DNA from: Lepas anatifera
Lineage: Eukaryota > Arthropoda > Thecostraca > Lepadidae
Direction of reading: 5' to 3'
DNA: 64,000 nt
Assembly (NCBI GenBank): GCA_034440635.1
Contig: JAOTON010000040.1
Span: 558,001-622,000, forward strand
Shown: piece by piece, positions 15,615 to 45,719 of the stretch
How positions within the stretch are numbered: the stretch's first letter is position 1
Layout: each line of letters opens with the position of its first letter
The notes under the pieces: generated by a model
The model's input: only the letters and a program-made list of their open reading frames with translations
Told to the model about the DNA's origin: nothing
The model's database searches: none
Translations under genes and position numbers: made by a program

Positions 15615-16432
15615 GTCAGAAGCCGGTGACGAACGAAGTAAGAAACGGCTTCTATTCTGACAGTTTTTCCGGTCTCGTCGTTGTCAGAAGCCGGTGACCA
15701 ACGAAGTGAGAAACGGCTTCTATACTGACAGTTTTTCGTTCTCTGTTGTCCGTCAGAAGCCGGTGACGAACGAAGTGAGAAACGGCTTCTATACTGACAG
15801 TTTTTCGTTCTCTGTTGTCCGTAGTAGTAGTAGTCAGAAGCCGGTGACGAACGAAGTAAGAAACGGCTTCTATTCTGACAGTTTTTCCGGTCTCGTCGTC
15901 AGAAGCCGGTGACGAACGAAGTGAGAAACGGCTTCTATACTGACAGTTTTTCGTCAGAGCCGCATGACGAAATCCATGGAGCGAAGCGCATTGAGATTTC
16001 TCAAGATGCTCTATTCTGGCCGCTTTACCGGTCTCGTCGTGGTCTGTCAGAGCCGCATGACGAAATCCATGGAGCGAAGCGCATTGAGATTTCTCAAGCG
16101 GCTCTATTCTGGCCGCTCAGACGGGTCTCGTCGTGGTCTGTTGTCAGAAGCCGGTGACGAACGAAGTAAGAAACGGCTTCTATTCTGACAGTTTTTCCGG
16201 TCTCGTCGTCGTCGTTGTCAGAAGCCGGTGACGAACGAAGTAAGAAACGGCTTCTATTCTGACAGTTTTTCCGGTCTCGTCGTTGTTTGTTGTCAGAAGC
16301 CGGTGACGAACGAAGTAAGAAACGGCTTCTATTCTGACAGTTTTTCCGGTCTCGTCGTCGTCGTTGTCAGAAGCCGGTGACGAACGAAGTAAGAAACGGC
16401 TTCTATTCTGACAGTTTATCCGGTCTCGTCGT
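15615..16432 (+). repeat. Hairpin-cassette array 1 (nine A units, two B units)
   Basis: A units start at 15615, 15683, 15752, 15833, 15898, 16143, 16217, 16292 and 16366. Each reads GTCAGAAGCCGGTGACGAAC..., has a 20-nt loop, then CGGCTTCTATTCTGACAG and a T-run. GTCAG pairs with CTGAC and AAGCCG with CGGCTT, leaving a 3' CTATT bulge. B units start at 15953 and 16046 and read GTCAGAGCCGCATGACG..., with the arm GCGGCTCTATTCTGG. Both types close with GGTCTCGTCGT. The array is cut at 16432 by a hAT insertion and resumes at 20577. Function is unknown. The short frames through it are periodic and conserved only because the repeat is. Confidence 0.9.
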
Positions 16433-19400
16433 CAGGGGCGCAGCCAGAGCTTTCGTATGGGTGGGGCACACTAACTTTGAGGGGCACCCCGGGAAAAAGG
16501 GCACTTTTAACGTAACCTAAAAAACTTACTATATCTTTGTTTATATAATTTTTTGGGCATCTTTGGTTCAATAAAAATGCAAAGAAATCATTGACGGAGA
16601 AGGAAAACTCGATTAAAACCGAAAAAAGAACAAAATAACACCAAAATGCCATGGAAGTAGCCAAAACACTACTTTTTCGGATAGATTTAAGGGCAGCCAA
16701 CTCATGCAAGTACTTAACATCAGAGAAATCAGCGGAGCATGTGATATCTGTTACAATGTGCAGGTTAAGGCATATTGGAGTCGAAAATTTTTTTGTTATG
16801 CCCACTGGTTTTGTCGTGACGAGTGAGCCCTAGCTGAATGCGGATTAAGTTCCTTGCCTCCCACAATCGCCGTGGGACGAGGAGTAGCATAGTGTCTTTG
16901 GAAGAACACATTTTTGCTGCCGGAAAATTTGGGAGATACCTTTTGAACGCGTTTATTAAGTTCCATATTCGCAAGGCTCGGTCCCAGTTAAGAGTAAATA
17001 AAAGGTGAACAGGCCGGTGGTTTGGATGGGGATGGTGTGACAGGGCTGAAAATTGTGAAAACTATTTCTTCATCTAAATTAATTAGTAGAAATCCTGGTT
17101 TAGGGGACTGTGCTCTGAGCTCAGGGGCACATGCCTTTTTATCATCCCTTCCCAGAATCCACCAGTATAATAAGCAATTTATATAACCAGGGGTGCCTAG
17201 GTATCACAAGCCGTTTTAGAGATTCCACATTCCCCGTTAGCTCCGTTTTACAAGGGGAGTTTCCATTGTGTTCTTATTCCCCGTCTATTCAAGACCAGCT
17301 CTGGGGCCCCTAAGTGTGGATCAGAGGCCTCCAGAGCAACCTCCCCCATCCCCCCAGTTGCACCTCCAAGGAATAGACTAGCTCAGTGACCCCGCCCCAA
17401 GATGATGGGAGTTGGCCTTGTGTTCTTATTATCTATCTATTCAAGATCATCTCAGGGGCCCCTGATGTAGATCAGGGCCACAGAGCAGCTCATCCTTCAC
17501 CCAGGGACTAGACTAGCTCATTGGTCCCAAAGATGAGGTCATCAGACTAGCTCAATGGGCCACAGATAGGCTCATAGGGCCTTGAACCAGTTCAAGAAGT
17601 TCCAGAACAGTTTAAGGCGCCAGATCACCTCAGGGGGCCTCAAACCAACTTAAGGGGCTTTCACAAGCTCAGCGCCCAGACCAGCTCAGGGTACCCTCAG
17701 AACCTAGATCCACTCTTGGGCACCAGATCAGCTCTTGGGGCCCCAGATCAGCTCAGGGGCCTCAAGTCAGGTCAGGGGGCAAGATCAAGTCAGGGGCACT
17801 AATTCAGCTCAGGAATCCCTCATTAGCTCGGGGCCCAAGCAGTTCAAAAGCCCCAGAGCTGCTCAAGGGACACCAGATCGGCCCATAGGGCACCAGATCA
17901 GCCTCGGGGGACAAACAATCAGATCAATGGTCCCCGACCAGCTCGGGGCCCATATCAGCTTGGGAATACCAGATCAAGTCAGGAGGCACTTAATCAGCTC
18001 AGGAGCCCCATACCATCTCAGGGGCCCTCACCAACCCCTGTGGGCCCAGCTCAGCTCAGGGCCTGGGAGCTGCTCAGGAAATCACGTAATCAACCCATGA
18101 GGCCCGGGTCAGCTTAAATGGCACCATATTAGCCATAGGGCACCCGACTAGCTCAGAGGGAATAAGATGGGCTCAGGAGACACACTGATGATTCAGCAGG
18201 TACCAGATCGACTCAGGGGGCATTAGTTAAGTTCAGGAGGCAGTATATCTGCTCAGGGTGCACCAGATCGATCAGCACAGGGGGCATGTTCAAGTCAGGG
18301 GCACTAAATCAGCTCAGGGATCCCTCACCAGCTCCGGGCCCAATCAGTTCAAAAGCCCCAGAGCTGCTCAGGGGACACCAGATGCCCATAGGGCACCAGA
18401 TCAGCTCCGGGGACAAACAATCAGATCAGTGGTCCCCGACCAGCTCGGGAATACCAGATCAAGTCAGGAGGCACTTAATCAGCTCAGGAGCCCCATACCA
18501 TCTCAGGGGCCCTCACCAGCCCCTGTGCGCCCAGCTCAGCTCAGAGCTTTAGAGCTACTCATGAAATCATGTAAGGAGGCCCAGATCAGCTTAAAGGGCA
18601 CCAGATTACTCAGGGGGGGCATCATATGGGCTCAGGAGGCACCAGATCGACTAAGGGGCATTAGTGCAGCTCAGGTGGCACCAGATCGATCCGCTCGGGG
18701 TCCAGATCAGCTCCCAGCCCTCCCCAGACTATGGCAGGAGCCTAAATCAGCTCAGGGAGCAACATAACAGCTCAGGGGACACAAGGTGGGCTCAGGGCCC
18801 ACCAAACCAGCTCAGGGGGACCAGACCATCTAAGGAGACATCAATAATCAGTTGAGGGGGCACCTAATCAGCTGAAGAGGCACCATATTGACTTAGGATA
18901 CAGAATCAACTTGGGGAGGCATGAGATCAGCTCGGGGGCCCGAATCAGCTCAAGGGGCACTAAATCAGCTATCAGGGCACCAAACAAGCTCGGAAGCATT
19001 AGACTAACTCAGAGAGCATTATATAGGTTCAGGAGGCACAATTATTTGCTCAGTGGGGCACTCGATTGACTCAGGGGCACCAGATCAGCTTAGAGGGCAA
19101 GTAATCAGCTCAAGGGGCCAAGACCAGCTGAGAGGCCACGAGATGAGCTCAAGGAGCACCAGATTGGCTTCACCCGTACGATTATTGGCGACGATGAGGC
19201 ATTAGGTAGACACATACTAGGTGCCCATACTCTTCCCGGGTGCTTGGAAAGGCGACAGAATGCCCTAGCTGACCGAGAAAGGTATTAAGTTGTCCAACAA
19301 TAGTTTCAATCGCTACATGCGGTCCAGTTACATCTGGGTTAAACGGCTAGGGCTCTAAATTTCGAGCGGCACGGCCCAAATTGGGTACACCACCTGGCAA

Positions 19401-20576
19401 TCAAAAGGGCACCCCGGCAGTGATGGGGGCATGTGCCTCCTGTGCCTTCCTGGCTGCACCCCTGGACAGTAGATCAACTCCGGGAGGCATTAAATAAGCT
19501 CAGGGGGCCCGTATCAGCTCAAGGGGCAATAAAACAGCTAATAGGGCAGCAGGCAGGCTCGGAGGCATCAGACTAACTTAGAGAGCATTATATAGGTTCA
19601 GAAGGCACAATTATTTATTCAGGGGGGGGCACCAGATTGATTACGAGGGCATCAGATCAGCTCAGAAGGCACATGATCACCTCCAGGGGGCACCAGATGA
19701 GCTCCACCCGTACGATTATTGGCGACAATGAGGCATTATCTGGAAACGGATTACGTGCCTATACTCTTCCCGGGTGCTTGGAAAGGCGACAGAATGCTTT
19801 AGCTGACCAAAAAGGCACTTAATTGTTAAACAATAGTTGAAATCGCTAAATGCGGCCTAGTTCCATCTAGGTTCAACGGCGTAGGGCACTAAATTTCGAG
19901 CGGCACGGCCCAAAGAGGGTACACCACCTGGCAATCAAAAGGGCACCCGGCACCGATGGGGGCACGTGCCCCCTGTGACCCCTGGCTGCGGCCCTGGGCA
20001 GTAGGTAAACTACGGGAGGCATTAAATAAGTTCAGGGGGCCCGGATCAGCTCAAGGGGCACTAAAACAGCTAATAGGGCACCAGGCAAGCTCGGAGGCAT
20101 CATACTAACTCAGAGTTCATTATATAGATTCAGAAGGCACAATTATTTTCTCAGGGGGGGGCACCAGATTGACTACGAGGGCATCAGATCAGCTCAGAGA
20201 GCACATGATCAGCTCCAGGGTTCAAGACCAGCGCTCAGGGGGCACCAGATGAGCTCAAGGGGCACCAGATTGGCTGTGCCCATACGATTATTGGCGACAA
20301 TGAGGCATTATCTGGAAACGGATTACGTGCCTATACTCTTCCCAAGTGCTTGGAAAGGCGACAGAATGCCCTAGCTGACCAAAAAGGCACTTAGTTGTCA
20401 AACAATAGTTGAAATCGCTAAATGCAGTCTAGTTACATCTAGGTTCAACGGCGTAGGGCCCTAAATTTCGAGCGGCACGGCCCAAAAAGGGCACACCACC
20501 TGGCAATCAAAAGGGCACCCCGGCACCGATGGGGGGGCACGTGCCCCCTGTGCCCCCCCCCCTGGCTGCGCCCCTG
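16433..20576. mobile_element. 4.1-kb hAT-type non-autonomous element inside the hairpin array
   Basis: Perfect 15-bp inverted termini, CAGGGGCGCAGCCAG, are flanked by exact octamers CTCGTCGT (16425-16432 and 20577-20584). This shows insertion into a cassette tail. No transposase motif is visible inside. The left 0.9 kb is unique, and most of the rest (about 17330-20300) is CTCAGGGGC-type minisatellite. The right-end sequence occurs three times, ending at 19464, 19996 and 20576. Only the last is flanked by the duplication, so the element seems to have grown by tandem amplification of its own 3' segment. Confidence 0.85.
17330..20300. repeat. CAGATCAGCTCAGGGGC minisatellite with higher-order repeats
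   Basis: Imperfect units of about 20-22 bp are built on AGATCAGCTCAGGGGCACC. A block of roughly 0.5 kb starting near 17785 recurs near 18300. A 0.53-0.58 kb block ending in the element's terminal sequence occurs in three copies from about 18930 to 20576. Frames through it reach 169 codons but follow the repeat. Confidence 0.85.
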
Positions 20577-21290
20577 CTCGTCGTTGTCTGTTGTTGTTGT
20601 CAGAAGCCGGTGACGAACGAAGTAAGAAACGGCTTCTATTCTGACAGTTTTTCCGGTCTCGTCGTTGTTGTCTGTTGTTGTTGTTGTCAGAGCCGTATGA
20701 CGAAATCCATGGAGCGAAGCGCATTGAGATTTCTCAAGCGGCTCTATTTTGGCCGCTCAGACGGGTCTCGTCGTGGTCTGTTGTTGTAGTCAGAGCCGCA
20801 TGACGAAATCCATGGAGCGAAGCGCATTGAGATTTCTCAAGCGGCTCTATTCTGGCCGCTCAGACGGGTCTCGTCGTGGTCTGTTGTTGTCAGAACCACA
20901 TGACGAAATGCATGGAGCGCAGCGTAATAGTATTTCTCAGAGTGGTTCTAATCTGGCCGCTTTACCGGTCTCGTCGTGGTCTGTCAGAGCCGCATGACGA
21001 AATCCATGGAGCGAAGCGCATTGAGATTTCTCAAGCGGCTCTATTCTGGCCGCTCAGACGGGTCTCGTCGTGGTCTGTTGTTGTTGTTGTTGTCAGAGCC
21101 GCATGACGAAATCCATGGAGCGAAGCGCATTGAGATTTCTCAAGCGGCTCTATTCTGGCCGCTCAGACGGGTCTCGTCGTGGTCTGTTGTTGTTGTTGTC
21201 AGAGCCGCATGACGAAATCCATGGAGCGAAGCGCATTGAGATTTCTCAAGCGGCTCTATTCTGGCCGCTCAGACGGGTCTCGTCGTGGTC
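20577..21290 (+). repeat. Hairpin-cassette array 2 (one A unit, six B units)
   Basis: This continues array 1 after the hAT insertion. An A unit starts at 20599 and B units at 20686, 20789, 20889, 20983, 21092 and 21198, separated by variable TTG tracts. The unit at 20889 is a variant. Its stem is AGAACCAC with GTGGTTCT instead of AGAGCCGC with GCGGCTCT, so two paired positions have changed on both sides. The B loop contains a second pairing, GAAATC with GATTTC. The array leads directly into the first alpha unit body. Confidence 0.9.
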
Positions 21291-22407
21291 TGTTGTTGTT
21301 GTTGTTGTTTTTGTTGTTGTTGTTGGCGTCTGTCAGTCCTGAGAATTGATGTCAGAGCTCTGGAATTTTGTAGGGTGATAGTTCTTCTGCTCCAGACACC
21401 CAAACTGAAGCCCCGAGTCGAAATCCAAAATAGTTTTTTAGAAATTTTGGCTCAAACTTTTTCTGTTTTATATTTTTCTAATTTTTTCTTCTTAAGCTAT
21501 GAACTTGAATTTTATGTCCTTTTCAAAAGATAACAAGGGCCAGCTAGGGCAAAAATTGAGCTGATCCGACAATATTTATTGCGTGAAAACGCGTATTTCT
21601 CACGTCAGCAAAAAACCTGCTAAAAGTTGATGGCCGACTTGTGCGCTCGAAATGTCAGAAGGGATGCCTCAGTTAGCTGAAAGGCAGTTACCTAGGAGTA
21701 GCTAGGCCAATTTTGTTGTGCTTAGGCATAGTTTTGAGTGCAAAACGTAAAATTTTGACCTACTTTTTACAGTTCTTCCGGAAGACTGAATTTTGGTTCA
21801 TTTCACTTCAACGTTAATATCTCAAAATCGAATTGACCGATTTGAGTTTTCATTTCAAATAATGAAAGAGCATTGCTTCCACCTGATAATATTTGAAGAT
21901 GGAAATTGTGAATGTGAAATTCTTTGTTTTATAGGCATAAATAGAAATTGAGTAAACAAACTTTTTATTTGCATCTTCCTGGTTCCAAGCTCATGTCACT
22001 CACAAACTCAGAACTGACATGGCTGAATAGGAAAGTTACTTGCCGTCATTTCGCTCACTTATACTACCCACCTATCTCTAAAGGCTTTCGAGTAATTAGT
22101 CAAAAATGTATTACAAGATGCTAAATTTCTCGGACCACCTTTGCTTCCCACCATGGTTTCAAGTCTTTAAAATGGATGGAAGTGGAAGTAATTTGGCATG
22201 AAGCTAGCTTAGCATCCTAGCTCGATGATACAAGTAATTTCAGCCCAAAAGAATGCTTGGTTCGTCTTCTGGAAGCACCTTTATATCGTGCCTTTTCGGG
22301 ACAAGCACAGCACCCGGCGCCAGCGGCCCGGCATATTCGGCGGAGTTGTACCAGCCAGTGACCTCCTGACGGGTCACAGGTGTTCAGCTAGTGGGAGTGT
22401 GTGCAGT

Positions 22408-22454
22408 GTGGCACGGTGGTCTAGTGGTTAGAGGCCCTGTCTGTTGATCAGGTA
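22408..22454 (+). repeat. 5' half of a tRNA-like segment split by the LINE
   Basis: GTGGCACGG then TGGTCTAGTGGTTAGAGGCC (A-box region) and an anticodon-loop-like CTGTTGA (GTT, Asn-like). The T-arm and B-box half lies at 29383-29410 beyond the LINE. An uninterrupted copy is at 30654-30728. The acceptor ends do not pair well, so it is a tRNA-derived element rather than a gene. Confidence 0.7.
22441..22454. repeat. Target-site duplication, left copy
   Basis: CTGTTGATCAGGTA is repeated exactly at 29369-29382 and bounds the LINE. The equivalent site in alpha unit 2 reads CTATTGATCGCGTA, the unfilled target. Confidence 0.92.
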
Positions 22455-22590
22455 TGATGATGATGATGATGATTATTGGTGTTTAAGAGCACTTCAGCTT
22501 CTTTGGCTATATGTGCCCAGCATTGTCAGGTTAGGTCAGTTCAAAATGATCTTGGTTAGCTATGAATTTTCTATGCCGGAGGTGTCGCCG

Positions 22591-25500
22591 CTAAAAAGTG
22601 CTGTGAGGGCTATAAACGATGTCAAACTTTATTTCTTTCAGGTAAGATAAAACGTCTTTGATGTCTACGACGGGATCGTTTCCAAGACACTGCTCTAAAG
22701 AGACCGATGGGAAGAATCGACGCATTTGCCTTTTGAGATTGTCACAGCAGTCTGCCTCGGATAAAACATGCTGGACAGCAAGGCGGTTGCCACAATGTAA
22801 ACACAGGTTAGGAGTAGAGCTATTCAGGTGGTAGGCATGAGTGGCATAACAGTGCCCAATGCGGAGTCTAGAGAGGGCCACCTCCTCTCTTCTGCTTTTT
22901 CTGTTGCTCGACTCCCATCTCTCAATGGAGGTGCGCAGGCGTTTCATAAAGCACTCTGGCTCTGCAGCCCACCTTGACTGCCATTCAGTCTCCTGTAGTG
23001 TTCTGAACGATGCTTTGAGGTCTGAAGCCGGAATCCTAAACTGACGCGAAGGGGGTAGTACGGACGCCTCTTTCGCAACCTTATCGACTTTTTCGTTCCC
23101 TGAAATTCCAATATGGCTCGGTACCCAAAGAAAGCGCACATCAGTCCCTCTGGAGGAGATCGCTGACAGAAGCCTTCTTATAGATGGTATAAGCCAGTTT
23201 TGCTGTGGGTGATGAGATTGGAGTGCTGTCAGTGAGCTAGCAGAGTCCGTTATGATAAGACATCGATCCTCTTGAGAACGCTTGATGTGTCTTAAAACCC
23301 GGAGAATGGCATATAGTTCTGTGGTAAAAACCGAAACAGACCCTGGTAGGCTAAACCCTTGGCTCAGTCCCTCCCCTAAAAAGGCGCTTCCAGCACCGCC
23401 GGTAGACTTCGAGCCGTCGGTGTAGAACCGGGCATGAGCTGCATAGGAGCCGATTTTGCGCAGCGCTAAGGCCAGAAATTCTGAGGGTAGTGTTGCTGCT
23501 TTTTTATGGCGCATCAGATCGAGATCGCATTGTGCAGGGATGAGTCGCCATGGTTCCGTACGTTCTGGTCGCGTTTCAGCAATTACTTCCAGGTCAACGC
23601 CGCTGCCTTCTAACCACAGAGATACACGCAAACAGAGAGCTCGTGAAGATGTCTGTCGCACCATTCTGAGGGGCATAGTCAAATTTTCGTCGAAAATCCA
23701 CCTGTATGTTGGATGGGACGGATCCTGCCTGATTTTGCTAGCGTATGATAATGCCAACCGCTTCCTTCTCAGGTCTAGTGGAGGTTCATTGGCGTCTACT
23801 AGAAGGCTTGCCCTGCGGGACGTGCGAAAAGCGCCCGTCGCCACTCTAACACAGGCGTGGTGTACAGCGTCCAGAGGCTGCTTAACGTTGCTCAAAGCAC
23901 CATCATATACTACTGAGCCATAATCTAGTACGGACCTAATGAGAGCACGGTACAAACGGAGGAGTGTTAACCTATCGGCACCATAAGATGTGCGAGAAAT
24001 CACCTTTAGCACATCCATCCGTTTGAAACATTTATCTCGCAGGAGTGATATGTGGGGGGCGTATGTCAAGCGTTTATCCATCGTCATGCCCAGGAACTTT
24101 GCTTCCGGGACGATTGGGACTCTCCTGCCGTATAAACGGAGACTGATGTCAGTACACGAGCGGCGGCGGCAGAAGTGCATACACACAGTTTTCTCAGTGG
24201 AAAATCTAAAACCGTTCTTCAGGCTCCATTCGGATAACCGGTCTATGCATATTTGGAGCTGTCGCTGTGCTGAAATCGAGGTGGAGGTGCTTAACCACAC
24301 CGCTAAGTCATCTACGAACAGAGATTTCTCGACTGTGGGAGGTAGAATTTCGCAGACGTCATTAATTAAGATACCGAACAGGGTCACGCTTAAAACGCCG
24401 CCCTGGACCACACCACTCTCCTGGTAGAAACTATCAGATAGCGAGTTGCCCACTCTCACTCTGAACTTCCGTCTCTTCATAAAATTGTCAATAAAGAATC
24501 CCATGTGACCCTTGATGCCAGCTTTCCGTGCCTTGTCTAAAACCGCGTAGCGCCAGGCTGTGTCATAGGCCTTTTCGATGTCAAATAGTAAAGCAAACAC
24601 GTGTTGCTTTGAGGCGAATGAACGGCGTATTGATGAATCTAGCGATGTAAGATGGTCGGTAGTGGACCGCCCTGCGCGGAATCCACATTGAGCATTAGAA
24701 AAGAATCCGGTGCTCTCCAGGTACCAAACCAGACGTGCGTTTACCATGCGTTCTAAGAGTTTACATACACATGAGGTCAAGGCAATCGGTCTATAGTGAA
24801 GGGGGTCGCTACCATCCTTGTCGGCTTTTAAAACTGGGATGACAGTGGCATCTCTCCAGGCAGTGGGAAAATCGTGTGTGGTCCAAAGGAAGTTGAAGTA
24901 AGACAATAAAGCAGTAGAAGACCGTTCGCTGAGATTCTTTATCATGTCAATGTGTATACCGTCCGGGCCAGCGGCTGTGCTTCTCGCCCGAGACAGTGCG
25001 GTGTTAAGTTCTGATATGGTAAAAGGGTCATTGTATGATAGTTGTTCATGGGAGCTAAAACTCACTGGGAGACGTTCCCTCCGTTCTTTGTGCCGTAAAA
25101 ACCTTGGGTCTGAACAGGCCAGCCGCCAGCGAGCAGCCCACGCATTGCCAAAGGCGTTCGCTACCTCTGTGGGGTTAGAAATTGTTCCGCCGGAACCTGT
25201 CAGAACCGGCAGGGACATGGCACAGCTACGGCCGGCCAGACGATGTACTCGCCGCCAAATTGTTGTTAATGGTGTTAGCCGATTTATTGTTGTAATATAA
25301 GTTTGCCATGATTTTCGTTTTGCATCTCTAACTGTGCGTCTGGCTAGTGCTTTTGTACGTCGGTATTCTATTAAATTGTGAGTTGTCGGCTGTCTTGTAA
25401 ATAATTTAAAACGGCGTCGACGTTCTCTAATGGTGCGCCTGCACTCCTCCGTCCACCAGGGCACGGGGATGCGCCGTGGGAGCGAGCTAGTCTTAGGTAT

Positions 25501-26379
25501 GAAAGTCTCAGCCGAGTCTAGAATTCGAGCACGCAGCTCCTCCTCGCATATTGTAGCGGTTTCGGCCTCGTCTGGTGTAAAATCGAGGACACAGTCAGAG
25601 GTAAAACCCTGCCAGTCGGCCCGCCGTAAGTTCCACTGCGGCGTTCTCCTGCCCGGATGTGGGGTCTCAGACCAAAGCCAGATCGGGTAGTGATCGCTGT
25701 TGCACGGATGCGAATGAGTTCGCCACTTAAAGCGGTCGGCTATTGAAGCTGAACAGAGAGATAGATCAACTGCCGATGCTGTTCCTGAAGGCAATGAGAT
25801 GTGTGTAGGGTGACCTGTGTTTAAAGTGCATATGTTAAAGCGGTGGATTATTTCCTCCAAGCGCCGGCCTCGCCTATTTGTGCGGGGGCAGCCCCATGTT
25901 GTGTTATAAGCGTTGAAGTCACCTAATATTATATAATTTGCTGGCAACTGTTGTATTAAATTTGTGAGTTCATCGCCAGGAAAGTCCTCACCGGGAGGGA
26001 GATATAGGGATACGATGGTTGCTTTAAATTGTTGTAGGTCGACGGTCGCTGCTACAGCCTGTAGGCTTGTTCTCAAGCGGAACGGATGGGCAGGGACGCT
26101 AAAATGGGCAAGCAGCGCTACTCCTCCATGAGCAATTGTTGTGGAATGAACGTCGTATCGAAATGTTTTATAGTATATTTGCTGGCAATGATGGTCATGT
26201 TTTAGCTTGGTCTCCTGTAAGGCAACTACTACAGGAGTTTTCTGTGCTAACAATGTTTGGAGTTCCGTGTGATTTGCCCTAAAACCTCTCATGTTCCACT
26301 GTAAAATAAACGTCATTAGGTAGAGTACGAGTAGGGTGTGTAAAAACTTTCCTAGATTGAAACCTCGGTCGTCTATCAT
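22591..26379 (-). CDS. LINE ORF2 polyprotein: endonuclease, reverse transcriptase, RNase H
   Basis: The frame is intact and about 1262 codons long from the ATG at 26379-26377. Near the N-terminus ILQWNMRG and VALQETK (Glu about residue 56) mark the AP-type endonuclease that nicks target DNA, followed by GDFNAYNTTWG and SDHYPIWL. The RT domain shows AAGPDGIHIDMI, HYRPIALTS, CGFRAGRSTTDHL, LLFDIEKAYDT (motif A), SGVVQGGVLS and SLFVDDLAVW (catalytic FVDD). RNase H follows with FYTDGSKS, FTTELYAIL, IITDSASSL and WVPSHIGISGNEKVDKVA, so its Asp-Glu-Asp set is present. A C-terminal CLHCGNRL then HVLSEADC resembles the zinc motif of this group. The ATG overlaps the ORF1 stop as ATGA, suggesting termination-reinitiation. 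I chose this ATG over an upstream TTG; the endonuclease itself starts about 22 residues later. Confidence 0.95.
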   Translation of the reverse strand: MIDDRGFNLGKFLHTLLVLYLMTFILQWNMRGFRANHTELQTLLAQKTPVVVALQETKLKHDHHCQQIYYKTFRYDVHSTTIAHGGVALLAHFSVPAHPFRLRTSLQAVAATVDLQQFKATIVSLYLPPGEDFPGDELTNLIQQLPANYIILGDFNAYNTTWGCPRTNRRGRRLEEIIHRFNICTLNTGHPTHISLPSGTASAVDLSLCSASIADRFKWRTHSHPCNSDHYPIWLWSETPHPGRRTPQWNLRRADWQGFTSDCVLDFTPDEAETATICEEELRARILDSAETFIPKTSSLPRRIPVPWWTEECRRTIRERRRRFKLFTRQPTTHNLIEYRRTKALARRTVRDAKRKSWQTYITTINRLTPLTTIWRRVHRLAGRSCAMSLPVLTGSGGTISNPTEVANAFGNAWAARWRLACSDPRFLRHKERRERLPVSFSSHEQLSYNDPFTISELNTALSRARSTAAGPDGIHIDMIKNLSERSSTALLSYFNFLWTTHDFPTAWRDATVIPVLKADKDGSDPLHYRPIALTSCVCKLLERMVNARLVWYLESTGFFSNAQCGFRAGRSTTDHLTSLDSSIRRSFASKQHVFALLFDIEKAYDTAWRYAVLDKARKAGIKGHMGFFIDNFMKRRKFRVRVGNSLSDSFYQESGVVQGGVLSVTLFGILINDVCEILPPTVEKSLFVDDLAVWLSTSTSISAQRQLQICIDRLSEWSLKNGFRFSTEKTVCMHFCRRRSCTDISLRLYGRRVPIVPEAKFLGMTMDKRLTYAPHISLLRDKCFKRMDVLKVISRTSYGADRLTLLRLYRALIRSVLDYGSVVYDGALSNVKQPLDAVHHACVRVATGAFRTSRRASLLVDANEPPLDLRRKRLALSYASKIRQDPSHPTYRWIFDENLTMPLRMVRQTSSRALCLRVSLWLEGSGVDLEVIAETRPERTEPWRLIPAQCDLDLMRHKKAATLPSEFLALALRKIGSYAAHARFYTDGSKSTGGAGSAFLGEGLSQGFSLPGSVSVFTTELYAILRVLRHIKRSQEDRCLIITDSASSLTALQSHHPQQNWLIPSIRRLLSAISSRGTDVRFLWVPSHIGISGNEKVDKVAKEASVLPPSRQFRIPASDLKASFRTLQETEWQSRWAAEPECFMKRLRTSIERWESSNRKSRREEVALSRLRIGHCYATHAYHLNSSTPNLCLHCGNRLAVQHVLSEADCCDNLKRQMRRFFPSVSLEQCLGNDPVVDIKDVLSYLKEIKFDIVYSPHSTF

Positions 26380-27983
26380 GTTTCCCAACTCCTCCCGTCG
26401 AACATCTCTGGTTCTCTCCAGGCAGCGCGGGAGTTCCAGTTCCTTGCCTCACGTGGAGGGTTATTAGGGTTCCTTGGGGGCGAGCGTTTAGCAAACACTG
26501 GCCTCTCTACCATGTATGCATCGCCTGTATACCCCGGCCTCCCGTCATCTTGGGGGATGGGCCTTCGTATGCGCTGTCTGAGGTCTCCCGAGTTCCTTAG
26601 ATCTGCTTGAGCTGGCCCTAAATTCTCCATGGATTGGGCACGCTGAGTTTGATTGAGTTTGATTTGTTGTTTTGGTGTTTTTACAGTGACTCGAGGAATT
26701 GATAGTTCGAGGCCTTTGCTGGAGCGGAAAGAGTGCTCCGGACGCTGTTTTTGTGTTATTTTTATTGTGTCCTCGCTACTTTTGGTATTTGTTGTTGATG
26801 TGAGCTTACGTTTCTTGCTTTGTGTTACAGTACTAGAAGCGACTTCGACTGCCTGTTGTGGGTGGACTCTTTGACGTATTGGTTTGTCACTGGTCGGAGG
26901 GGGCATCAGGGCAGACCCATCCACTTCCTCCGGGGCTTCGCCCTCACCCTCATAGGGGTTTGCCTTTGTGCCTGCGGCCTCCTCAGGGGGAAGCGTAGGA
27001 GTGATGTGTTCCGTCATGGAAGACGGCACGACTGGGCGTTGGGGAGGTGGTGATAGAGTTGGGGAGGCTTCCCGAGCTCTCTTGCCGGAGGTTTCAGTTT
27101 GAGGGGGATCACGGCTGACTGTGCAGCTCTGGGAGGCTGACTCGGCACTGAGCGCTCGGAATTCTGACGGGTCCGTCCCCACTGCAGCGTCTCGGTACTG
27201 TGGTGGTGGTGATGACGTTTGCGTCACTGCGTCGACTTTCTCCCCACAGCCCATATGTTTGCAGCTGGAGTCATCTGGTTGACTGGGTAGGAACTTAGCA
27301 ACCATCGCGAGGAACTGGCGGAGGGAGAGATTCATGAACTGACCGATTTTCGAATCCACGGTAAGTGCAGGACGGGTCTCAGTGATGGTTTCAGCTGGTG
27401 CGACACTGCGCTGGGATCCCACCAGGGCATCTCGGTAAGGAGAGTGGTCGGTAGAAGGCTTTGCCCGGGATGTTACGGGTGTGGCCGCCGGCACTGGTTT
27501 TGGAGGAAGTGGGACTTTTCTTTTCTGGGTCTCCTTAGCCTCAGTCAGTTTAGGGCACAACCTGCTCCACGCCTCGTGGTCGCCTCCACATCCGGCACAC
27601 TTGGGTTTCTCTACCTCGCACGATCTGGAGCTGTGACCTACCTCTGAGCATCTACCGCATCGTTCCCTACCTCTGCAGCTGCCAGCGATATGACCGAATG
27701 ACTGGCACCTGAAACACCTAATGGGGCTAGGAACAAAGGGACGAACCTTAATGGTCATCCAGCCCACTCGCACCTTCTCAGGCAAGGTAGTCCCTGAAAA
27801 CACGAGCATGAACGTGCCGTTGTCCGTCCCCTGGCTTTCCCCTCTCCGCAGCATACGTTTGGCTTCTGACACGCCCTGATCTCTTAGGCCTGACAGGATC
27901 TCCTCCTCAGAGACATCGCGTAGGTCTTTGCAGCTGATCACGCCTCTGCAGCTGTTTTTGGTAGCATGCGGAGAGACCTTCAC
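26376..27983 (-). CDS. LINE ORF1 (Gag-like RNA-binding protein), main open part
   Basis: This 535-codon frame encodes the nucleic-acid-binding protein that coats LINE RNA. The start carries the conserved SRGVI-like segment (SCRGVISCKDLRDVSEEEIL) and the RNA-binding fold region that ends in VRPFVPSPIRCFRC. Three tandem zinc knuckles follow: CFRCQSFGHIAGSC, CGRCSEVGHSSRSC (both C-x2-C-x4-H-x4-C) and a variant CAGCGGDHEAWSRLC. The remainder is a low-complexity Pro/Ser/Thr/Lys-rich tail. The stop overlaps the ORF2 start by ATGA. The protein's natural N-terminus lies upstream in other frames (28019-28351), so the first ATG here is probably internal to the original ORF. Confidence 0.88.
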   Translation of the reverse strand: MKVSPHATKNSCRGVISCKDLRDVSEEEILSGLRDQGVSEAKRMLRRGESQGTDNGTFMLVFSGTTLPEKVRVGWMTIKVRPFVPSPIRCFRCQSFGHIAGSCRGRERCGRCSEVGHSSRSCEVEKPKCAGCGGDHEAWSRLCPKLTEAKETQKRKVPLPPKPVPAATPVTSRAKPSTDHSPYRDALVGSQRSVAPAETITETRPALTVDSKIGQFMNLSLRQFLAMVAKFLPSQPDDSSCKHMGCGEKVDAVTQTSSPPPQYRDAAVGTDPSEFRALSAESASQSCTVSRDPPQTETSGKRAREASPTLSPPPQRPVVPSSMTEHITPTLPPEEAAGTKANPYEGEGEAPEEVDGSALMPPPTSDKPIRQRVHPQQAVEVASSTVTQSKKRKLTSTTNTKSSEDTIKITQKQRPEHSFRSSKGLELSIPRVTVKTPKQQIKLNQTQRAQSMENLGPAQADLRNSGDLRQRIRRPIPQDDGRPGYTGDAYMVERPVFAKRSPPRNPNNPPREARNWNSRAAWREPEMFDGRSWET

Positions 27984-28018
27984 CGGTAGAGACAGAGACC
28001 TGTTGGGTGTCCGGATTT

Positions 28019-28351
28019 CTAGGGAGGAGGTTGAGAGCAGCTTTTAGCATCGGGCTCACTTCCCATTTCAACCTCGACTCGCCCATTCGGGTGTCTGTAA
28101 GTCCGTTTTGGATGGAACTTTCGCAGGGCTTCATGGATCTGAAATGGATTCACCTTAACTGTTCTATCCTCGAAGTCAATGACGAGAGTCAAGGGGGTGG
28201 TCTGCTCTGGTCGAGTTCGTGCGGGGGGTTCAGTTCCCGAGAAATCCATCGCGGCGGCGACGTCGGTGGGTGGACAAGAGGTGGTCGGCGTCAATGCGGG
28301 GGTCGGAGTCCGTGCGGTCGATTCAGTTGGTGTACAAGTAGGAGAGGCCAT
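28019..28351 (-). pseudogene. Frame-shifted 5' part of LINE ORF1
   Basis: A 110-codon frame starts MASPTCTPTE, is Thr/Pro-rich and then gives LVIDFEDRTVKVNPFQIHEA, typical of the start of the folded domain in I/Jockey ORF1 proteins. It ends in a stop at 28019. A third frame (about 28030-27990) appears to carry the linking stretch LLNLLPRNPDTQQVS before the 26376-27983 frame takes over. Two small indels therefore seem to separate it from the main ORF1. Confidence 0.75.
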
Positions 28352-29368
28352 GATGAGTCAGTTTACCTTCGGCCCCCGGGTTGCCAGCTGTCAATAGCTG
28401 GGCCCAGGGGCTGGTACAGTGCCTACGGGGGGCAGGTGCGGCCGTCTCAGAGGGGCGAGAGATACTCACACAACCCCTCCGATCAGAACGCACCCACCCC
28501 TTGACGCCATCAGCCCAGTGGGCCGGCAGGGCCATGAGTCGGGACTAAGCAAAACGTGGCAGCCCTCACGCAGCGGAGACTGCGGTCCACCAGGCGCGCG
28601 CAACAGGCCGGGGTCTCGAAAAACGACGGTTTCCGAAACCCCGGCCCGCGTCACGCCCGGCAAGAACTATCACAGTCCCCACTGCGAAGGGCGCCGCGTC
28701 GCACGCCCGAAACATGATCCCCCTGCCCAGCTGGACCGAGCGACAGTGCCCGTTGACACTGCCGCGTAGCTAGGCCGCCCGCGGCAGCCTACGGACGGCT
28801 TACCCCCGGTTGGATCGACATATCTGGGCCAAAGGGGGCGTGTTGGAGCCCTCGGGACTGACCCGCCCGAGGGGGACCTCAACCCCCCAGGATCCCGTCA
28901 ACCTCGTCGCCGGGGCTCGAGATAGGCCTCGAGTAGGCGCCTTACACCCATAAAAAGGCCGAAGAAGGCAAATAACTGTGGAACCAATAACTGAAGCGTA
29001 AAAAGAGGAAAGGAACTAAACATAATCAACAAAATGAGAAAACAAAAACAAACAGGAGCTACATACTGGGAGGTGCAGGACACAACTGACCCGATCCAAT
29101 ACGGTTACCGACCAGGTAACAAAGGGCCCGTAAGGCAGTCATCAGCACCACCGCAGACCTCATCACCAGGGCCGCCGACGACAGAAGCCGACTCTAACCG
29201 ACCGAGATCGGAAGAGCCGGCGGCCGCCGGAGAGCCAGACATGACGTGTCCGCGGTGATGCGTCGACATGCCTCCAAGGGCTGACTGGGGCCCCGGGCGC
29301 GTCACTCCCCGTTGCTCCATCTTTACTGCCGGACGAATCCGGCAAGTGAAGATCGGTCCCCTGAGGGG
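28352..29368 (-). other. LINE 5' leader
   Basis: GC-rich sequence (notably 28560-28900) between the target duplication and ORF1. No coding motif is seen. I-group LINEs usually carry an internal promoter here, but I cannot point to a specific site. Confidence 0.6.
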
Positions 29369-29382
29369 CTGTTGATCAGGTA
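29369..29382. repeat. Target-site duplication, right copy
   Basis: CTGTTGATCAGGTA, identical to 22441-22454. It is followed by the T-arm half of the tRNA-like segment (GGTCCGGTTCGAATCC). Confidence 0.92.
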
Positions 29383-29550
29383 GGTCCGGTTCGAATCCGG
29401 GGGTGACCACGTACCATTTATTGGTTATTTTAAAGAAAAGAATGATAAAACTGACGAGATGCATTAAGAACGAAATATGGTTTACTTTCAGCACATTGTC
29501 ATGCGGCTCTCCTGCGCCGGTGGGGTGTTAGCCCAGGTCGCAGACCGGAG

Positions 29551-30883
29551 TTGTTGTTGTTGTTGTTGGCGTCTGTCAGTCCTGAGAATTGATGTCAGAG
29601 CTCTGGAATTTTGTAGGATGATAGCCCGTCTGCTCCAGACACCCAAACTGAAGCCCCAAGTTGAAATCCAAAATAGTTTTTGAGAAATTTTGGCTCAAAC
29701 TTTTTCTGTTTTATATTTTTCTAATTTTTACTTCTTAAGCTACGAGCTTGAAATTTATGTCCTTTTCAATCGATAACAAGGGCCAGCTAGGGGGAAAAAT
29801 TGAGTTGATCCGACAATATTTATTGCGCGAAAACGCGGCATTTCTCACGCGCGCAAAAAACCTGCTAAAAGTTGATGGCCGACTTGTGCGCTCGAAATGT
29901 CAGAAGACAGGCCTCAGTTAGCTGAAAGGCAGTTACCTAGGGGTGGCTAGGCAGATTTTGTAGTGCTTAGGCATAGTTTTGAGTGCAAAACGTAAAATTT
30001 TGACCTACTTTTTACAGTTCTTCCGGAAGACTGAATTTTGGTTCATTTCATTTCAACGTTAATATCTCACAATCTAATTGACCGATTTGAGTTTTCATTT
30101 CAAATAATAAAAGAACATTGCTTCCGCCTGATAATATTTGCAGATGGAAATTGTGAATGTGAAATTCTTTGTTTTATTGGCATAAAAAGAAATTGAGTAA
30201 AAAAACTTTTTTATTTGCATCCTCCTGGTTCCAAGCTCATGTCACTCACAAACTCAGAACTGACATGGCTGAATAGGAAAGTTACTTGCGGTCCTTTCGC
30301 TCACTTATACTACCAACCTATCTCTAATGGCTTTCGAGTAATTAGTCCAAAATGTATTACAAGATGCCAAATTTATCGGACCACCTTTGCTTCTCACCAT
30401 GGTTTCAAGCCCTTAAAATGGATGAAAGCGGAAGAAATTTGGCATGAAGCTAGCTTAGGATCCTAGTTCGACGATACAAGTAATTTCAGGCCAAAAGAAT
30501 GCTTGGTTCGTCTTCTAGAAGCACCTTTATATCGTGCCTTTTCGGGACAAGCACAGCACCCGGCGCCAGCGGCCCGGCATATTCGGCGGAGTTGTACCAG
30601 CCAGTGACCTCCTGACGGGTCACATCTGTTCAGCTAGTGGGAGGGTGAGTAGTGTGGCACGGTGGTCTAGTGGTTAGAAGCCCTGTCTATTGATCGCGTA
30701 GGTCCGGTCCGAATCCGGGGGTGACCACGTACTCTTTATTGGTTATTTCAAAGAAAAGAATGATAAACCTGACTTGCAGGCTTATGAAGAGATACATTAA
30801 GAACGAAATATGGTTAGCTTTCAGGACATTGTCATGCGGCTCTCCTGCGCCGGTGGGGCGTTAGCCCAGGTCGCAGACCGGAG
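29551..30883 (+). mobile_element. Alpha unit 2 (uninterrupted)
   Basis: Starting with a TTG tract and GGCGTCTGTCAGTCCTGAG, this repeats alpha unit 1 almost base for base. It serves as the empty-site reference for the LINE insertion. The tRNA-like segment is intact at 30654-30728. The unit ends with box GTCATGCGGCTCT (30831-30843) and hairpin CCTGCGCCGG...CGCAGACCGGAG, and the next B cassette follows with no TTG tract between them (TCAGAGCC from 30884). Confidence 0.75.
30654..30728 (+). repeat. tRNA-like segment in alpha unit 2
   Basis: GTGGCACGG, an A-box region TGGTCTAGTGGTTAG, an anticodon-arm-like stretch, then B-box-like GGTCCGAATCC within TCCGG/CCGGG stem halves. The acceptor stem pairs poorly, so I call it tRNA-derived. 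Confidence 0.65.
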
Positions 30884-31145
30884 TCAGAGCCGCATGACGA
30901 AATCCATGGAGCGAAGCGCATTGAGATTTCTCAAGCGGCTCTATTCTGGCCGCTCAGACGGGTCTCGTCGTGGTCTGTTGTTGTTGTTGTCAGAGCCGCA
31001 TGACGAAATCCATGGAGCGAAGTGCATTGAGATTTCTCAAGCGGCTCTATTCTGGCCGCTCAGACGGGTCTCGTCGTGGTCTGTTGTCAGAAGCCGGTGA
31101 CGAACGAAGTGAGAAACGGCTTCTATACTGACAGTTTTTTGTTCT
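30884..31145 (+). repeat. Hairpin-cassette array 3 (two B units, one A-prime unit)
   Basis: B units at 30884 and about 30989 immediately follow an alpha unit whose end box is B-type. The A-prime unit at 31087 (arm CGGCTTCTATACTGACAG, then a GTTCTCTGTTGTCCGTAGTAG tail) immediately precedes a unit whose end box is A-type (33631). The switch of cassette type falls at the switch of unit type. Confidence 0.9.
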
Positions 31146-33684
31146 CTGTTGTCCGTAGTAGTAGTTGTTGTCTGTTCTGAGGACTGGTTTCAGATACTTG
31201 AAACTTGCAGGGATGAAAGGCAGGAACCAATAAAAAATCCCGACGGCTGCAGATTTTCGAATTTTGCAAAAACGTTTCCAAAATTTTGGATTATATTTTT
31301 CAAAACTTTTATTTTTCTATTTTTCTATTTTTAGTCTACAGCTCTCAAACTTACACTCTTTTACACACAATCAATTACCAGTTGTTGCTCAAAGTTTGAA
31401 GCAAAAATCCAAATTTGTACTTCCAAAATGATTTTTTGAAACTTTTACCTCCAACTTGTAAGGAAATGCATTACCAAAGTTATAAGTTCGAAATATCTGA
31501 AGATATGATGCTAGGTGTTCCAAACTGGATTTTTACAGACAGAATGGACTGTGCATTACTGCATAGACACTAAACTGAACCAAAAGCATAATTTTGAAGG
31601 TCAGTTTTGGCCCTTTTTCCAAAACATTGCAATTATGGCCTAAAACTTTAAAACCATATAACTTTCAAAATTCTGGACATTTTTGAGTGCAGTTTTCTTT
31701 GTTGAGATGGGTATTGTCATTACAACAACATATTCTAAACTCAAATTTCTGAGTTAATGGGAAATATTTTTCTGCAAAAATACAATATTTTTTGTTTTTT
31801 TGGGAATTTATGACTATATATTTCCAAATTTTCTTTTCGAAATTGGTACCAAAAAAAGCCCGGCTCAAGTTCTACAACCGTCTGCCTGACCATACCCGCG
31901 CGTCTCCCATAGGTTTTGAGCTATATGATGACAAAGACTGAATTTGATGCGGTTTTCATAGATTGTCATAGATTCATCACGTGATAAAGTGCCTTTATAC
32001 TCAACTGAGATATATGGCTCTCTCTATACTTGTAGTATGGGAAATTATGAGCTCTGCCGTTTTTGTTTCATGACGCTCAGACGACTAGTCCGCCACTGAG
32101 GGGCAAAATACTTCGGTCCCGTTTTTTTCGCAGGAGTCGTGACGTCATTCTGCCCTTCTTGCATGGACCTTCTGTGCTGCGGCAGTGGGCTGCAGGCGGT
32201 AAATGCGTGCAAGAAAGGCATAACATTTTTATCCGAGTGCATACAGCGGGTGGCTAGCCGGTCGGGGCGGACGGGAACCTAACTAGAAGGCAGTGGGTGC
32301 CGAGGCGTGTTTAGAGATCCGAGGAAGTGAGCAGTGATGCCCTCAGGTATCTAGGGAACGGTAGCAGGGTCCAGAGGCGTGCTGGGATAGCTCATGGGAA
32401 ACTTTTCGGACGGGGGAGCAGTGAGGATGGGGGCTGGTACGGGACTGGAGCCTTCCCCGCCATTGCCTCGGAACAGCTTCTGTGTTTGTATTAACCATAG
32501 ATATTCTGACATTGGGGGGGAAACTTCAGCCCCTAGCTCCGCCCATTGTATCTACCACCATTTGAATAGCCACCATGGATGTATATAAGCATATGAAAGA
32601 TTGAAGATTTCGTTGCACTCCGTACCAAATTACCGAACAATATCAATGAGAGGCAATCGACCATGCAGATTTCGAATGTGGTATTCAGGTCAACAAAAGG
32701 TCACTGCGCATGCGCACTGGAACTAATGGTAACAGAGGCTATCTCGGCAACCTACGGGTCGATTTTCTTGAAATTTTGTGAACAGAAGAATATCACGAAA
32801 TGTAAGTCAAAATTGTCATTGAAGCTGCACTGCTCTGCGCATGCGCAGCAGAAATTATGAAAATAAGCCTGAAAGGCGAGGGTATTTCAGAGGAGGACCT
32901 GAACAGAGGGAAAGCCAGCGTGCTTAAAGTTAGAATGAATGTTTTGTCACCCTTGGTAACAACAAAGTTCAGTGCGCATGTGCATTAGAACTTATGGTCA
33001 TGGAGGCTATCTCGGGAGCCAATAGACCGATTTCGCTCAAATTTTTGCGAGTAAAAGCAGAGTAGCATCTGCTAATCCTAATTGATGGCATTATGACGCT
33101 GCACTATTATGCGCATGTGCAGTAGAAATTCTAAGGAATAATAGGCTCTAAGGGATCATTTAGACCAGGAGACAAACAAACGGCATATTAACATGCTTCA
33201 GTCAACTATAACGGTATCTTTGCTCTCATTCACTGCATACGTTACTGTGCATGCGGACTGGGAGTAGGGTAACCGAAGCTAACTCGTTAACAAATTGGCT
33301 GAATTGGGTGAAAATCTGCAGGTATAGGTGAAATACGGTCGGCAAACCCATCATATTTTATCATGTATATCCTTTCTTCTGGTCATGCCCAGTCTTTACT
33401 TAACAAAACAACCATTATACGTGTGGTTATCTATGTGATGACATGAACAGAGGGCAAACGTGACGCAGTGTGCAGAGACATGCTAATGTAGCAAAACAAG
33501 GGCTTACACAGGGGATTGAATGGAGCCATAACGAGAACACAAAACCTAAAACTCCAACATTGCGTTGTTGTAAGTATCAAACTGCTGAAAACACTCGCCT
33601 GTCAATCGAACTGTTTGGCTAACGTACATTGTCACCGGCTTCTCCTGCGCCGGAGCGGCACCTGCCGAGGCCGCAGGCCGAGGT
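31146..33684 (+). mobile_element. Gamma unit 1 of the head-to-tail array
   Basis: It opens TGTTCTGAGGACTGGTTTCAGA (TCTGA/TCAGA hairpin) and has an AT-rich body to about 32600. Then come roughly three tandem copies of a 273-280 bp block (GAACAGAGGG-like words near 32896, 33168 and 33443; several GCGCATGCGC words). It ends with box GTCACCGGCTTCT (33631-33643) and a hairpin to 33684. There is no coding sequence. A near-identical copy lies at 41556-44099. Sub-terminal inverted boxes, terminal hairpin and internal tandem repeats resemble Helentron-associated elements. Confidence 0.7.
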
Positions 33685-37765: not shown

Positions 37766-39357
37766 CGAGCTGGGGACATAACTCGGTAACAAATAGGCTG
37801 AATTGGGTGAAAATCTGCAGGTATAGGTGAAATACCGTCGGAAAACCCATCATATTTTATATCGTATCTCCTTTCTTCTCGTCATGCCCAGTCTTTGTTT
37901 AACAAAACAAACATTATGCGTGTGTTTATTTCTTTGATGATATGAACAGAGGGAAGGCGTGGTGCAGTATGCAGAGACATGCTAATTTAGGAAAACATGG
38001 GCCTAGACAGGGGATTAAATGGAGCCATAATGAGAACACAAAACCTAAAACTCCAACATTGCGTTGTTATAAGTATCAAACTGCTGAAAAAACTCGCCTG
38101 TCAATCGAAATGTTTGGCTAACGTACATTGTCACCGGCTTCTCCTGCGCCAGAGCGGCACCTGCCGAGGCCGCAGGCTGAGGTTGTTGTTGTTGTTGTTG
38201 TTCTGTTCTGAGCGCTGGTATCAGAGACCTTAAACTTTTGTGGATAGAAGGCACTTCCAAATGAATAAGCACCACGGTTGTCAATTTTTAAAATTTTCAA
38301 AATTTTTCCCAGAATTTTGCATTATGTGATTTTTGACTTTTATTTTTCTATTTTTTTGCTAATTCATCTACAGTCTTCAAACTTGCACCCTTTTACATCA
38401 GGGAAATTTGTAGATCACACAAAAAGTTGGAAAGAAAAAGCTTTAAATTTAGGGCTCTAAATTAGCTTTTAAACTTTGCACCCTAAATTTGGCATAAAAT
38501 TCATGGTCTAAACTACAGGCTCGAAATATCTGAAGCTACAGCAGTTCAGGTTCTGAGTCAAATATCAACTTAAAGGCCGGTTTGTGCAGTACTGCACGAA
38601 CACAGAAACAAAACAAAAACGGAAATTTAAGGGTCCTTTTTGGCCCATTCCGTGAAGGTCTCCATTTCCCAAAATATCATTCAAACCCTTATATCTTCCG
38701 ATCTAATTGATAAAAATTAGTTCCCATTTCAGATAATAAAAGAGAATAGCCTCCTTTATTATATATTTAGAGATAAAAACTTTTAGACGGAAACTTTTTA
38801 TTTTATAGGCAAAAATAAAATATAAGTTTTTAAAATTTTTATTCTCAGCCCCCTGGTTTCTAGACCATGATAGCTACGGTATTGAACTTAACACGGCTGG
38901 ATAGAAAACTTCGTTGCCGTCATTTTTCTCACTCATACCCCCCACTTATCTCTTACGGCTTCCGCGCTATAAGCCGTAAAATACATTTCAAAGTGGTAAT
39001 TTTATCAGTTCATTTTTGCTTCACACCGGGGTTTAGGGTGGTTAGAGTCATTGAGGGAAATGAGATTTTGCATGCAGCTAGGTAAGAGATATATGTCGAC
39101 ATTCCATCTGCATAGATATCAATGAAACACCAAGTTACCTTTACAAACATGCCGTTTCTCCACGCAACGTTGTAGCAAATCACCACGCGTCACCCCTGCG
39201 TCCACGCCGCGGCAACGCCGGCGATCGGCGCGGCCGTTTCTGTTTATTTATGGTCTGGTAAAAAAGTACCCAATACTACCCATAATGCATCACAAGTAGT
39301 TAGAGTACCGTAAAAGTCCGAGTTTACAATAAGAGTATTATGTTTCTGTTTTTGGAC

Positions 39358-39775
39358 CATGGGTGGATCCAGGGAAAAAGTAGGCTACGTGCCCCCCCAT
39401 TCTCCCCCCATCCCCCTCCCCCAACCCCCAATCGACCATCGGCGCCGTCTGAAATTCTAAAGACACGCCTCTCAAGGTCGATGACGCTCCCTGAAATGTC
39501 GCTTCCCATACGCGGATCCAGGATTGCCTATCGGGGGCGAGGTGAAAGGGGGAACTTAATGGTGGGCGCTATCTACACCAGGGACGCCACTTTTGGCCGG
39601 AAAACCTATCAAGTAGGCGCTAAAACCTATCAGTAGACCCCGATTCCTGCATCTCGGGGAAAACGACATTTCAGGGGGTGCCATCGAACTTTCAAGGGGT
39701 TTCCGGGACAATTTCAGGGGGCGCTAAGATTCTATGGGGGGCACCTGTCCCCTTTCCCTATTGGATCCGCCTATG
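39358..39775. mobile_element. hAT-type miniature element, copy in beta unit 2
   Basis: Termini CATGGGTGGATCCAGG and TTGGATCCGCCTATG. Internal phrases GGCCGGAAAACCTATCA and CATTTCAGGGGG are shared with 4786-5064. A second internal CGGATCCAGGATTGCC end near 39512 suggests a partial nested copy. No target duplication is visible. Confidence 0.7.
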
Positions 39776-39809
39776 TCGTTTCGGGGGGGCACGGAGGTGG
39801 GGTCGTTAC

Positions 39810-45687: not shown

Positions 45688-45719
45688 TCGTTTCGGGGGG
45701 GCACGGAGGTGGGGTCGTT

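What the first reader, a model, noticed from the sequence alone, without database searches (positions are those of the whole stretch)
15615..31145. Two hairpin-cassette families whose stems are the exact inverse of the matching unit-end box
A cassettes carry AGAAGCCGGTGAC and beta/gamma units end in its inverse GTCACCGGCTTCT. B cassettes carry AGAGCCGCATGAC and alpha units end in its inverse GTCATGCGGCTCT. Both matches are 13 of 13, at equivalent positions after GTC and before CTCCTGCGCC. A and B share the GTCAG opening, the CTATT bulge and the GGTCTCGTCGT close. Cassette type also switches (30884-31145) exactly where unit type switches. This looks like a recognition pair that co-evolved in two lineages.
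Basis: partly seen in the sequence, partly recalled or inferred. Interest (0 to 1): 0.86.

Follow-up and report, generated by a model that had tools for sequence, protein, structure and literature searches.

The report
Self-stacking rolling-circle jumping genes
The hairpin cassettes and the matching unit-end boxes are the two ends of the same jumping genes in at least three type-matched families, likely of the rolling-circle kind, whose copies likely pile up by inserting into one another's short TTG repeats.

Summary
In the window 12 of 12 A cassettes carry AGAAGCCGGTGAC and 6 of 6 beta/gamma boxes its exact inverse; 8 of 10 B-like cassettes carry AGAGCCGCATGAC, 2 of 2 alpha boxes its inverse. 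A third family, B', has AGAACCACATGAC and box GTCATGTGGTTCT (94 boxes genome-wide). The cassette directly before a body is of the matching type at 53 of 53 distinct sampled junctions; 14 of 14 lone B elements sampled pair B with B. The cassettes are not separate things: they are the 5' ends of the units. Anatomy (5' TC, 13-nt subterminal inverted repeat, local hairpin, microsatellite, 3' box, 3' stem-loop) is that of Helitron2/HINE-type elements already in print, so the pair is a known kind of feature. What differs: insertion at G^T, not TT, and a (TTG)n linker that likely serves as landing site for further copies. Multiple 5' ends through self-insertion were already proposed for Fusarium Helitrons. 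The mirror order that pure nesting predicts was not supported (p = 0.22), and no autonomous partner with these ends was found.

The parts
15616..16433 (+). Pile of 11 cassettes (5' ends): A1 A2 A2 A1 A2 B B A1 A1 A1 A1, each starting TCAG after a G
20600..21333 (+). Rest of the pile, beyond an inserted DNA transposon: A1 B B B' B B B, the last B joined through a (TTG)n linker to alpha body 1
20890..20983 (+). B' cassette (AGAACCACATGAC, own hairpin partner GTGGTTCT)
   Evidence: family confirmed
21334..29550 (+). Alpha body 1, interrupted by a non-LTR retrotransposon on the minus strand
29498..29550 (+). Alpha 3' end: 13-nt B box then stem-loop
29551..30883 (+). Alpha body 2 without cassette: linker tail (TTG)6 then body, box 30831-30843
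30884..31174 (+). Cassettes B, B, A2; the A2 cassette leads into beta body 1
31175..33683 (+). Beta body 1; A-type box 33631-33643 and 3' stem-loop
33684..38182 (+). Gamma body 1 without cassette, linker tail at its start; box 38130-38142
38183..41490 (+). Gamma body 2 without cassette; box 41438-41450
41497..44098 (+). Complete A2-beta element (cassette 41497, box 44045-44057)
44099..48618 (+). Gamma body 3 without cassette; box 48566-48578
48619..52019 (+). Gamma body 4 without cassette; box 51967-51979; right edge of the island (next base T)

Best explanation
The cassettes and boxes are the 5' and 3' ends of three type-matched transposon families (A, B and B') with Helitron2/HINE-like anatomy, which likely move by rolling-circle replication and likely pile up because new copies insert at G^T inside the (TTG)n linker between another copy's 5' end and its body. 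Shown: 13/13 inverse words at both ends in three families; the first 8 nt of the 5' word also have an exact local partner (hairpin predicted); elements start TC 2 nt before the word and end 40 nt after the box, past a conserved stem-loop; insertion mostly at G^T; cassette-body type match; bodies without a cassette start with a linker tail. Inferred: a Rep/helicase supplied by an unidentified partner nicks at the 5' TC and stops at the 3' box and stem-loop; the 5' word alternates between local hairpin and end-to-end pairing, or both words bind the same protein, so both must change together. An insertion in the linker would leave the old cassette on the left and the old body on the right; later moves from an outer cassette to an inner box, plus recombination between repeats, would give unequal numbers of cassettes and bodies.
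For: Words; B' boxes; a B' element with both ends C34:681312-700282, interrupted by other repeats. Junction types: A1-gamma 20/20, A2-beta 6/6, B-alpha 25/25, B'-alpha 2/2. Lone B elements: 14 of 14 B/B, 12 with exact words, two with one change. All 66 bodies that follow a box without a cassette start with a TTG-rich tail; where the tail is diagnostic it is the body's own type: TAGTAG in 11 of 11 beta and 0 of 55 others, GGCGTCT in 11 of 23 alpha and 0 of 43 others (rows). Junctions: G before TCAG in 67 of 70 nested sites and in 18 of 24 distinct host sites (3 T, 3 A; my tally from the rows); T after the 3' end in 57 of 58. Empty site for one insertion event: C34:695468-696847 against window about 9461..GGTG^TTG.. 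uninterrupted. Typed nests with both halves seen: C34:679.8-701.6k B[B alpha0][B' alpha']alpha; C49:649.5-651k A1[B alpha]gamma (middle not fetched); C14:163.6-165.1k B[B alpha0]alpha. Folding: 5' hairpins z -2.4, -3.3, -2.7; matched 13-bp duplex -15.3 to -17.9 against -4.6 to -11.0 kcal/mol for mismatched types. 3' stem-loop 94.7% of cells paired, slid versions 17-46%. Multiple 5' ends by self-insertion already proposed for Fusarium.
Against: Mirror order expected from pure nesting not seen: 22 of 50 strict matches against 19.8 in shuffles, p = 0.22; maximal non-crossing matches 52 against 50.4, p = 0.13. Local counts do not balance: window 22 cassettes, 8 bodies; C1230 5 cassettes, 15 bodies. 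C36:332k has A1 B alpha followed by a second alpha with no second B. Three of the 66 cassette-less bodies carry extra sequence before the tail, two of them with remnants of a cassette (L113, L153; L065 without). No Rep/helicase gene with these ends in 14 pieces of up to 3.6 kb. Insertion at G^T, not TT. 3' ends alone do not fold better than shuffles (z -0.2 to -1.1), and covariation in them is modest.
Confidence: 0.78

Rival explanations
1. The piles arise mainly by tandem duplication: unequal crossing-over or rolling-circle read-through multiplies cassettes and bodies, and nesting plays a small part.
For: Unequal counts; C1230 has 15 boxes at about 1,325-bp steps after only 5 cassettes; order test not significant; adjacent cassettes are often the same type (A1-A1 44, B-B 17).
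Against: Cassette types mix within piles; linker prefixes and tails vary in length from junction to junction and are cut at G^T as in lone insertions; three typed nests with both halves.
Confidence: 0.3
2. Cassettes are independent small mobile or structural repeats that recognise the units' ends in trans.
For: Many cassettes stand in arrays without adjacent bodies.
Against: Each of the 14 lone elements has one cassette as its own 5' end; cassettes directly before a body match it 53 of 53; exact A and B cassettes (3,635 and 2,488) are close in number to the generic boxes (5,317).
Confidence: 0.05
3. Ordinary MITE or foldback DNA transposon moved by a DDE transposase.
For: Short inverted repeats near both ends.
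Against: The repeats are asymmetric (2 nt from the 5' end, 40 nt from the 3' end), and the one insertion event with an empty site shows no duplication.
Confidence: 0.06
4. The end match reflects only youth: all copies descend from a few masters and no pairing or shared recognition is needed.
For: Point variants are not paired: box variant ACGGCTT (18 copies) and cassette variant AAGCCGT (11 copies) share no contig except C49, where they lie 183 kb apart.
Against: Three families differ at 2-5 of 13 positions and the inverse holds at both ends each time, so the masters themselves changed in step.
Confidence: 0.2

Closest known systems
HINE / DINE-1 (non-autonomous Helentrons; PMC4067079, passages read)
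   Same: 11-15 bp subterminal inverted repeats at both ends, inverted repeat partly nested in the 5' one, microsatellite, 3' subterminal repeat followed by a palindrome, no target-site modification
   Different: Published preference is TT; here G^T. Here the microsatellite seems to take repeated self-insertions
Cg_HINE of Crassostrea gigas (PMC7492417, passages read)
   Same: 5' subTIR with complementary IR, microsatellite in the left flank, 3' subTIR and palindrome; families differ in subTIR and IR together
   Different: Central satellite-like repeats and TT insertion; no piles of 5' ends described in the passages read
Helitron2 / FoHeli of Fusarium oxysporum (PMC5148889, passages read)
   Same: Asymmetric inverted repeats, hairpins, FoHeli1 starts TCAG; copies with several 5' termini and one 3' terminus explained by self-insertion
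   Different: Insertion after TNAT, ends ATTTT; no (TTG)n landing linker in the passages read
Canonical Helitron (as described in the passages of PMC4067079 and PMC5148889)
   Same: 5' TC, 3' stem-loop close to the end, no target duplication
   Different: 3' CTRR and A^T insertion absent; subterminal inverted repeats present

Membership tests
HINE/Helentron | Subterminal inverted repeats of 11 bp or more at both ends | tested here: met
   13/13 in A, B, B'
HINE/Helentron | 5' repeat 2-4 nt from the 5' end; 3' repeat about 38-60 nt from the 3' end | tested here: met
   2 nt (TC) and 40 nt
HINE/Helentron | Inverted repeat partly nested in the 5' repeat, 3' palindrome | tested here: met
   8-nt exact local partner predicted to fold; 12-pair 3' stem-loop ending 6 nt from the 3' end (published distance 8-35)
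HINE/Helentron | Microsatellite | tested here: met
   TTG-rich linker in A1, A2, B, B' elements; absent in the alpha0 subfamily
HINE/Helentron | Insertion at TT / T-rich sites | tested here: not met
   Left base G in 18 of 24 distinct host sites (3 T, 3 A; tally from rows), right base T in 57 of 58
HINE/Helentron | No target-site duplication | tested here: met
   Empty site for one insertion event only
HINE/Helentron | Autonomous partner encoding Rep/helicase/endonuclease with the same ends | tested here: inconclusive
   57 Helitron_like_N matches in the genome; none of 14 pieces looked at carries these ends as its own, and no whole element was covered
[quoted passage not shown]
Helitron2 (wider group) | Rep/helicase in the Helitron2 clade | not tested
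   no linked protein found
Canonical Helitron | 3' CTRR end and A^T target | tested here: not met
   3' ends GAGG/GGAG/GGGG, G^T target
TIR DNA transposon / MITE | Target-site duplication | tested here: not met
   one insertion event

The most novel reading that the evidence does not exclude
A rolling-circle element family has turned its own (TTG)n linker into a landing strip, so copies stack into each other and build modular transposons with ten or more interchangeable 5' ends per pile, while a family-specific 13-nt end-to-end pairing, competing with a local hairpin, decides which 5' end may pair with which 3' end.
Probability: 0.25. Interest if true: 0.65.

Novelty: new variant of a known kind. 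Interest (0 to 1): 0.4.

Why it matters
How Helitron2/Helentron ends are recognised is open. Three families in one genome whose two ends changed together, thousands of copies, and naturally mixed 5' and 3' ends in one island make it testable whether end choice follows the 13-nt word. The likely self-landing linker also suggests one route from a dispersed element to satellite-like arrays.

Tried and rejected
Mirror-order test on 12 stacks: not significant, reported as such. The stack strings were assembled by me after I had seen them; one body in the C34 stack was not typed and was entered as gamma. A possible fourth family (box ACGGCTT) was dropped: 18 boxes and 11 cassettes look like scattered point variants. 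Search for an autonomous partner: 14 pieces, none; L031 has a B cassette next to a Rep gene but in the opposite orientation. tRNA and Rfam scans of the window: nothing. Papers: searches; the word GTCACCGGCTTCT occurs in three sequence-visualisation papers (listing only). That self-landing in a (TTG)n linker is not in print rests on these searches alone. From the 18 boxes, seven were dropped from the lone-element count: C35:620k and C54:80k (no cassette in the fetched piece), C43:257k and C49:964k (another box upstream), C49:642k (several cassettes), C49:650k and C34:681k (nested). A-type lone elements were not sampled. In the host-site tally, three rows that lie in linkers or after a box were left out and copies of one insertion were counted once. 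In the last recount matches under 45 bits were left out.
Full report
What is there. The window is part of a 1.04-Gb genome (G000, contig C39:558001-622000).

Parts of one element. In 14 lone copies a single B cassette lies about 1.3-1.5 kb before a B box, with other sequence on both sides. The elements begin TCAG and end 40 nt after the box in GGAG, GGGG or GAGG. Seven of the 14 are copies of one insertion in a host repeat whose reading frame continues across the insertion point (..GGC TGT G^TT GCG..), and an uninterrupted relative of that host lies in the window near 9461. So cassette = 5' end, box = 3' end, and no target duplication in this one event. Over the junctions sampled the base before TCAG is G in 67 of 70 nested sites; among 24 distinct host sites (my tally from the rows) it is G in 18, T in 3, A in 3; the base after the 3' end is T in 57 of 58.

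Type coupling. The cassette directly before a body is A1 before gamma 20/20, A2 before beta 6/6, B before alpha 25/25, B' before alpha-like 2/2 (distinct sequences, some of them copies of one insertion). B' is a true family: a cassette at C34:681312 and a box at C34:700262 bracket an alpha-like body interrupted by other repeats, and the box has 94 exact copies. A, B and B' differ at 2-5 of 13 positions and each time the inverse follows at the other end. Within the cassette the local hairpin partner is exact for the first 8 nt only; in B and B' it covers part of the rest with mismatches. The exact 13/13 partner is the box at the other end. Predicted 13-bp pairing is -15.3 to -17.9 kcal/mol for matched and -4.6 to -11.0 for mismatched types; the local hairpins are -7.4 (A), -16.5 (B) and -10.4 (B'). 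This fits either end-to-end pairing or a shared protein site; it does not prove either.

3' end. Eleven distinct 3' ends, chosen from 39 distinct ones, share a two-helix stem-loop directly after the box (94.7% of cells paired; slid versions 17-46%; two pairs with changes on both sides, reached by 59 of 500 shuffles, i.e. modest). Single 3' ends do not fold better than shuffles.

Why cassettes pile up on the left and bodies on the right. Between cassette and body lies a type-specific linker rich in TTG (beta also TAG). Cassettes without a body end in a prefix of such a linker. All 66 bodies that follow a box directly start with a TTG-rich tail; TAGTAG occurs in 11 of 11 beta and 0 of 55 others, GGCGTCT in 11 of 23 alpha and 0 of 43 others; three of the 66 carry extra sequence, two with remnants of a cassette (rows). 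The cuts are at G^T as in host DNA. Three places show both halves around inserted elements: C34:679.8-701.6k, C49:649.5-651k (ends seen, middle not fetched), C14:163.6-165.1k. Three islands with unrelated sequence on both outer sides have matching outer types: window A1/A, C40 A1/A, C46 B/B. The alpha0 subfamily, which has no TTG linker, was not seen split among the copies examined.

What does not fit. Pure nesting predicts balanced, mirror-ordered types. Over 12 stacks strict agreement was 22 of 50 against 19.8 after shuffling (p = 0.22), maximal non-crossing matches 52 against 50.4 (p = 0.13). Counts are unequal in both directions (window 22 cassettes, 8 bodies; C1230 5 and 15), and C36:332k has a second alpha with no B for it. 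Extra steps are needed: moves from an outer 5' end to an inner 3' end, as proposed for Fusarium, and recombination between repeats.

Place among known things. The anatomy is that of HINE/DINE-1, Cg_HINE and Helitron2/FoHeli elements; passages of these papers were read, not the whole texts. TT insertion, reported for Helentrons and Cg_HINE, was tested and not met, and no partner protein was found, so I call it Helitron2/HINE-like and do not file it as a Helentron. The pair of words is therefore a known kind of feature in new families; the likely landing linker and the G^T target are the variant parts.

Noticed in passing
window 16434-20577: Another DNA transposon sits inside an A1 linker: 15-bp inverted ends CAGGGGCGCAGCCAG / CTGGCTGCGCCCCTG and an 8-bp repeat CTCGTCGT on both sides (read); hAT-like by recollection.
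   Followed up: partly
window about 22453-29362 (-): Non-LTR retrotransposon with endonuclease, reverse transcriptase and RNase H domains inserted in the tRNA-like part of alpha body 1, between two copies of about CTGTTGATCAGGTA (read).
   Followed up: partly
window 22410-22465, 29371-29411 and 30655-30733: tRNA-like segment (box A- and box B-like stretches, by recollection) near the 3' part of alpha bodies; ARAGORN calls no tRNA.
   Followed up: no
G000 C1230:41769-60419 (-): Fifteen boxes of alpha-like bodies head to tail at about 1,325-bp steps with B and B' types mixed, almost a satellite, after only five cassettes.
   Followed up: partly
L031 1-62 (-): A B cassette in opposite orientation upstream of a Helitron_like_N gene.
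   Followed up: partly
L125-L128 (upstream of Helitron_like_N matches on C435, C1203, C1835, C1390): Rep-bearing family whose upstream regions are about 95-99% identical over long stretches, so likely recently active; none of the A, B or B' ends in the 2.9 kb looked at.
   Followed up: partly
window 13107-13967 (-): Repeats with TGGTTGGAGGGATGGAGAGCCGGGTGAG, giving near matches to the B word.
   Followed up: no
G000 C5, C34 (two), C36, C42, C46, C54: Seven copies of one alpha0 insertion in the same host repeat: the element was likely carried along when its host, which reads like a reverse-transcriptase gene, multiplied.
   Followed up: partly
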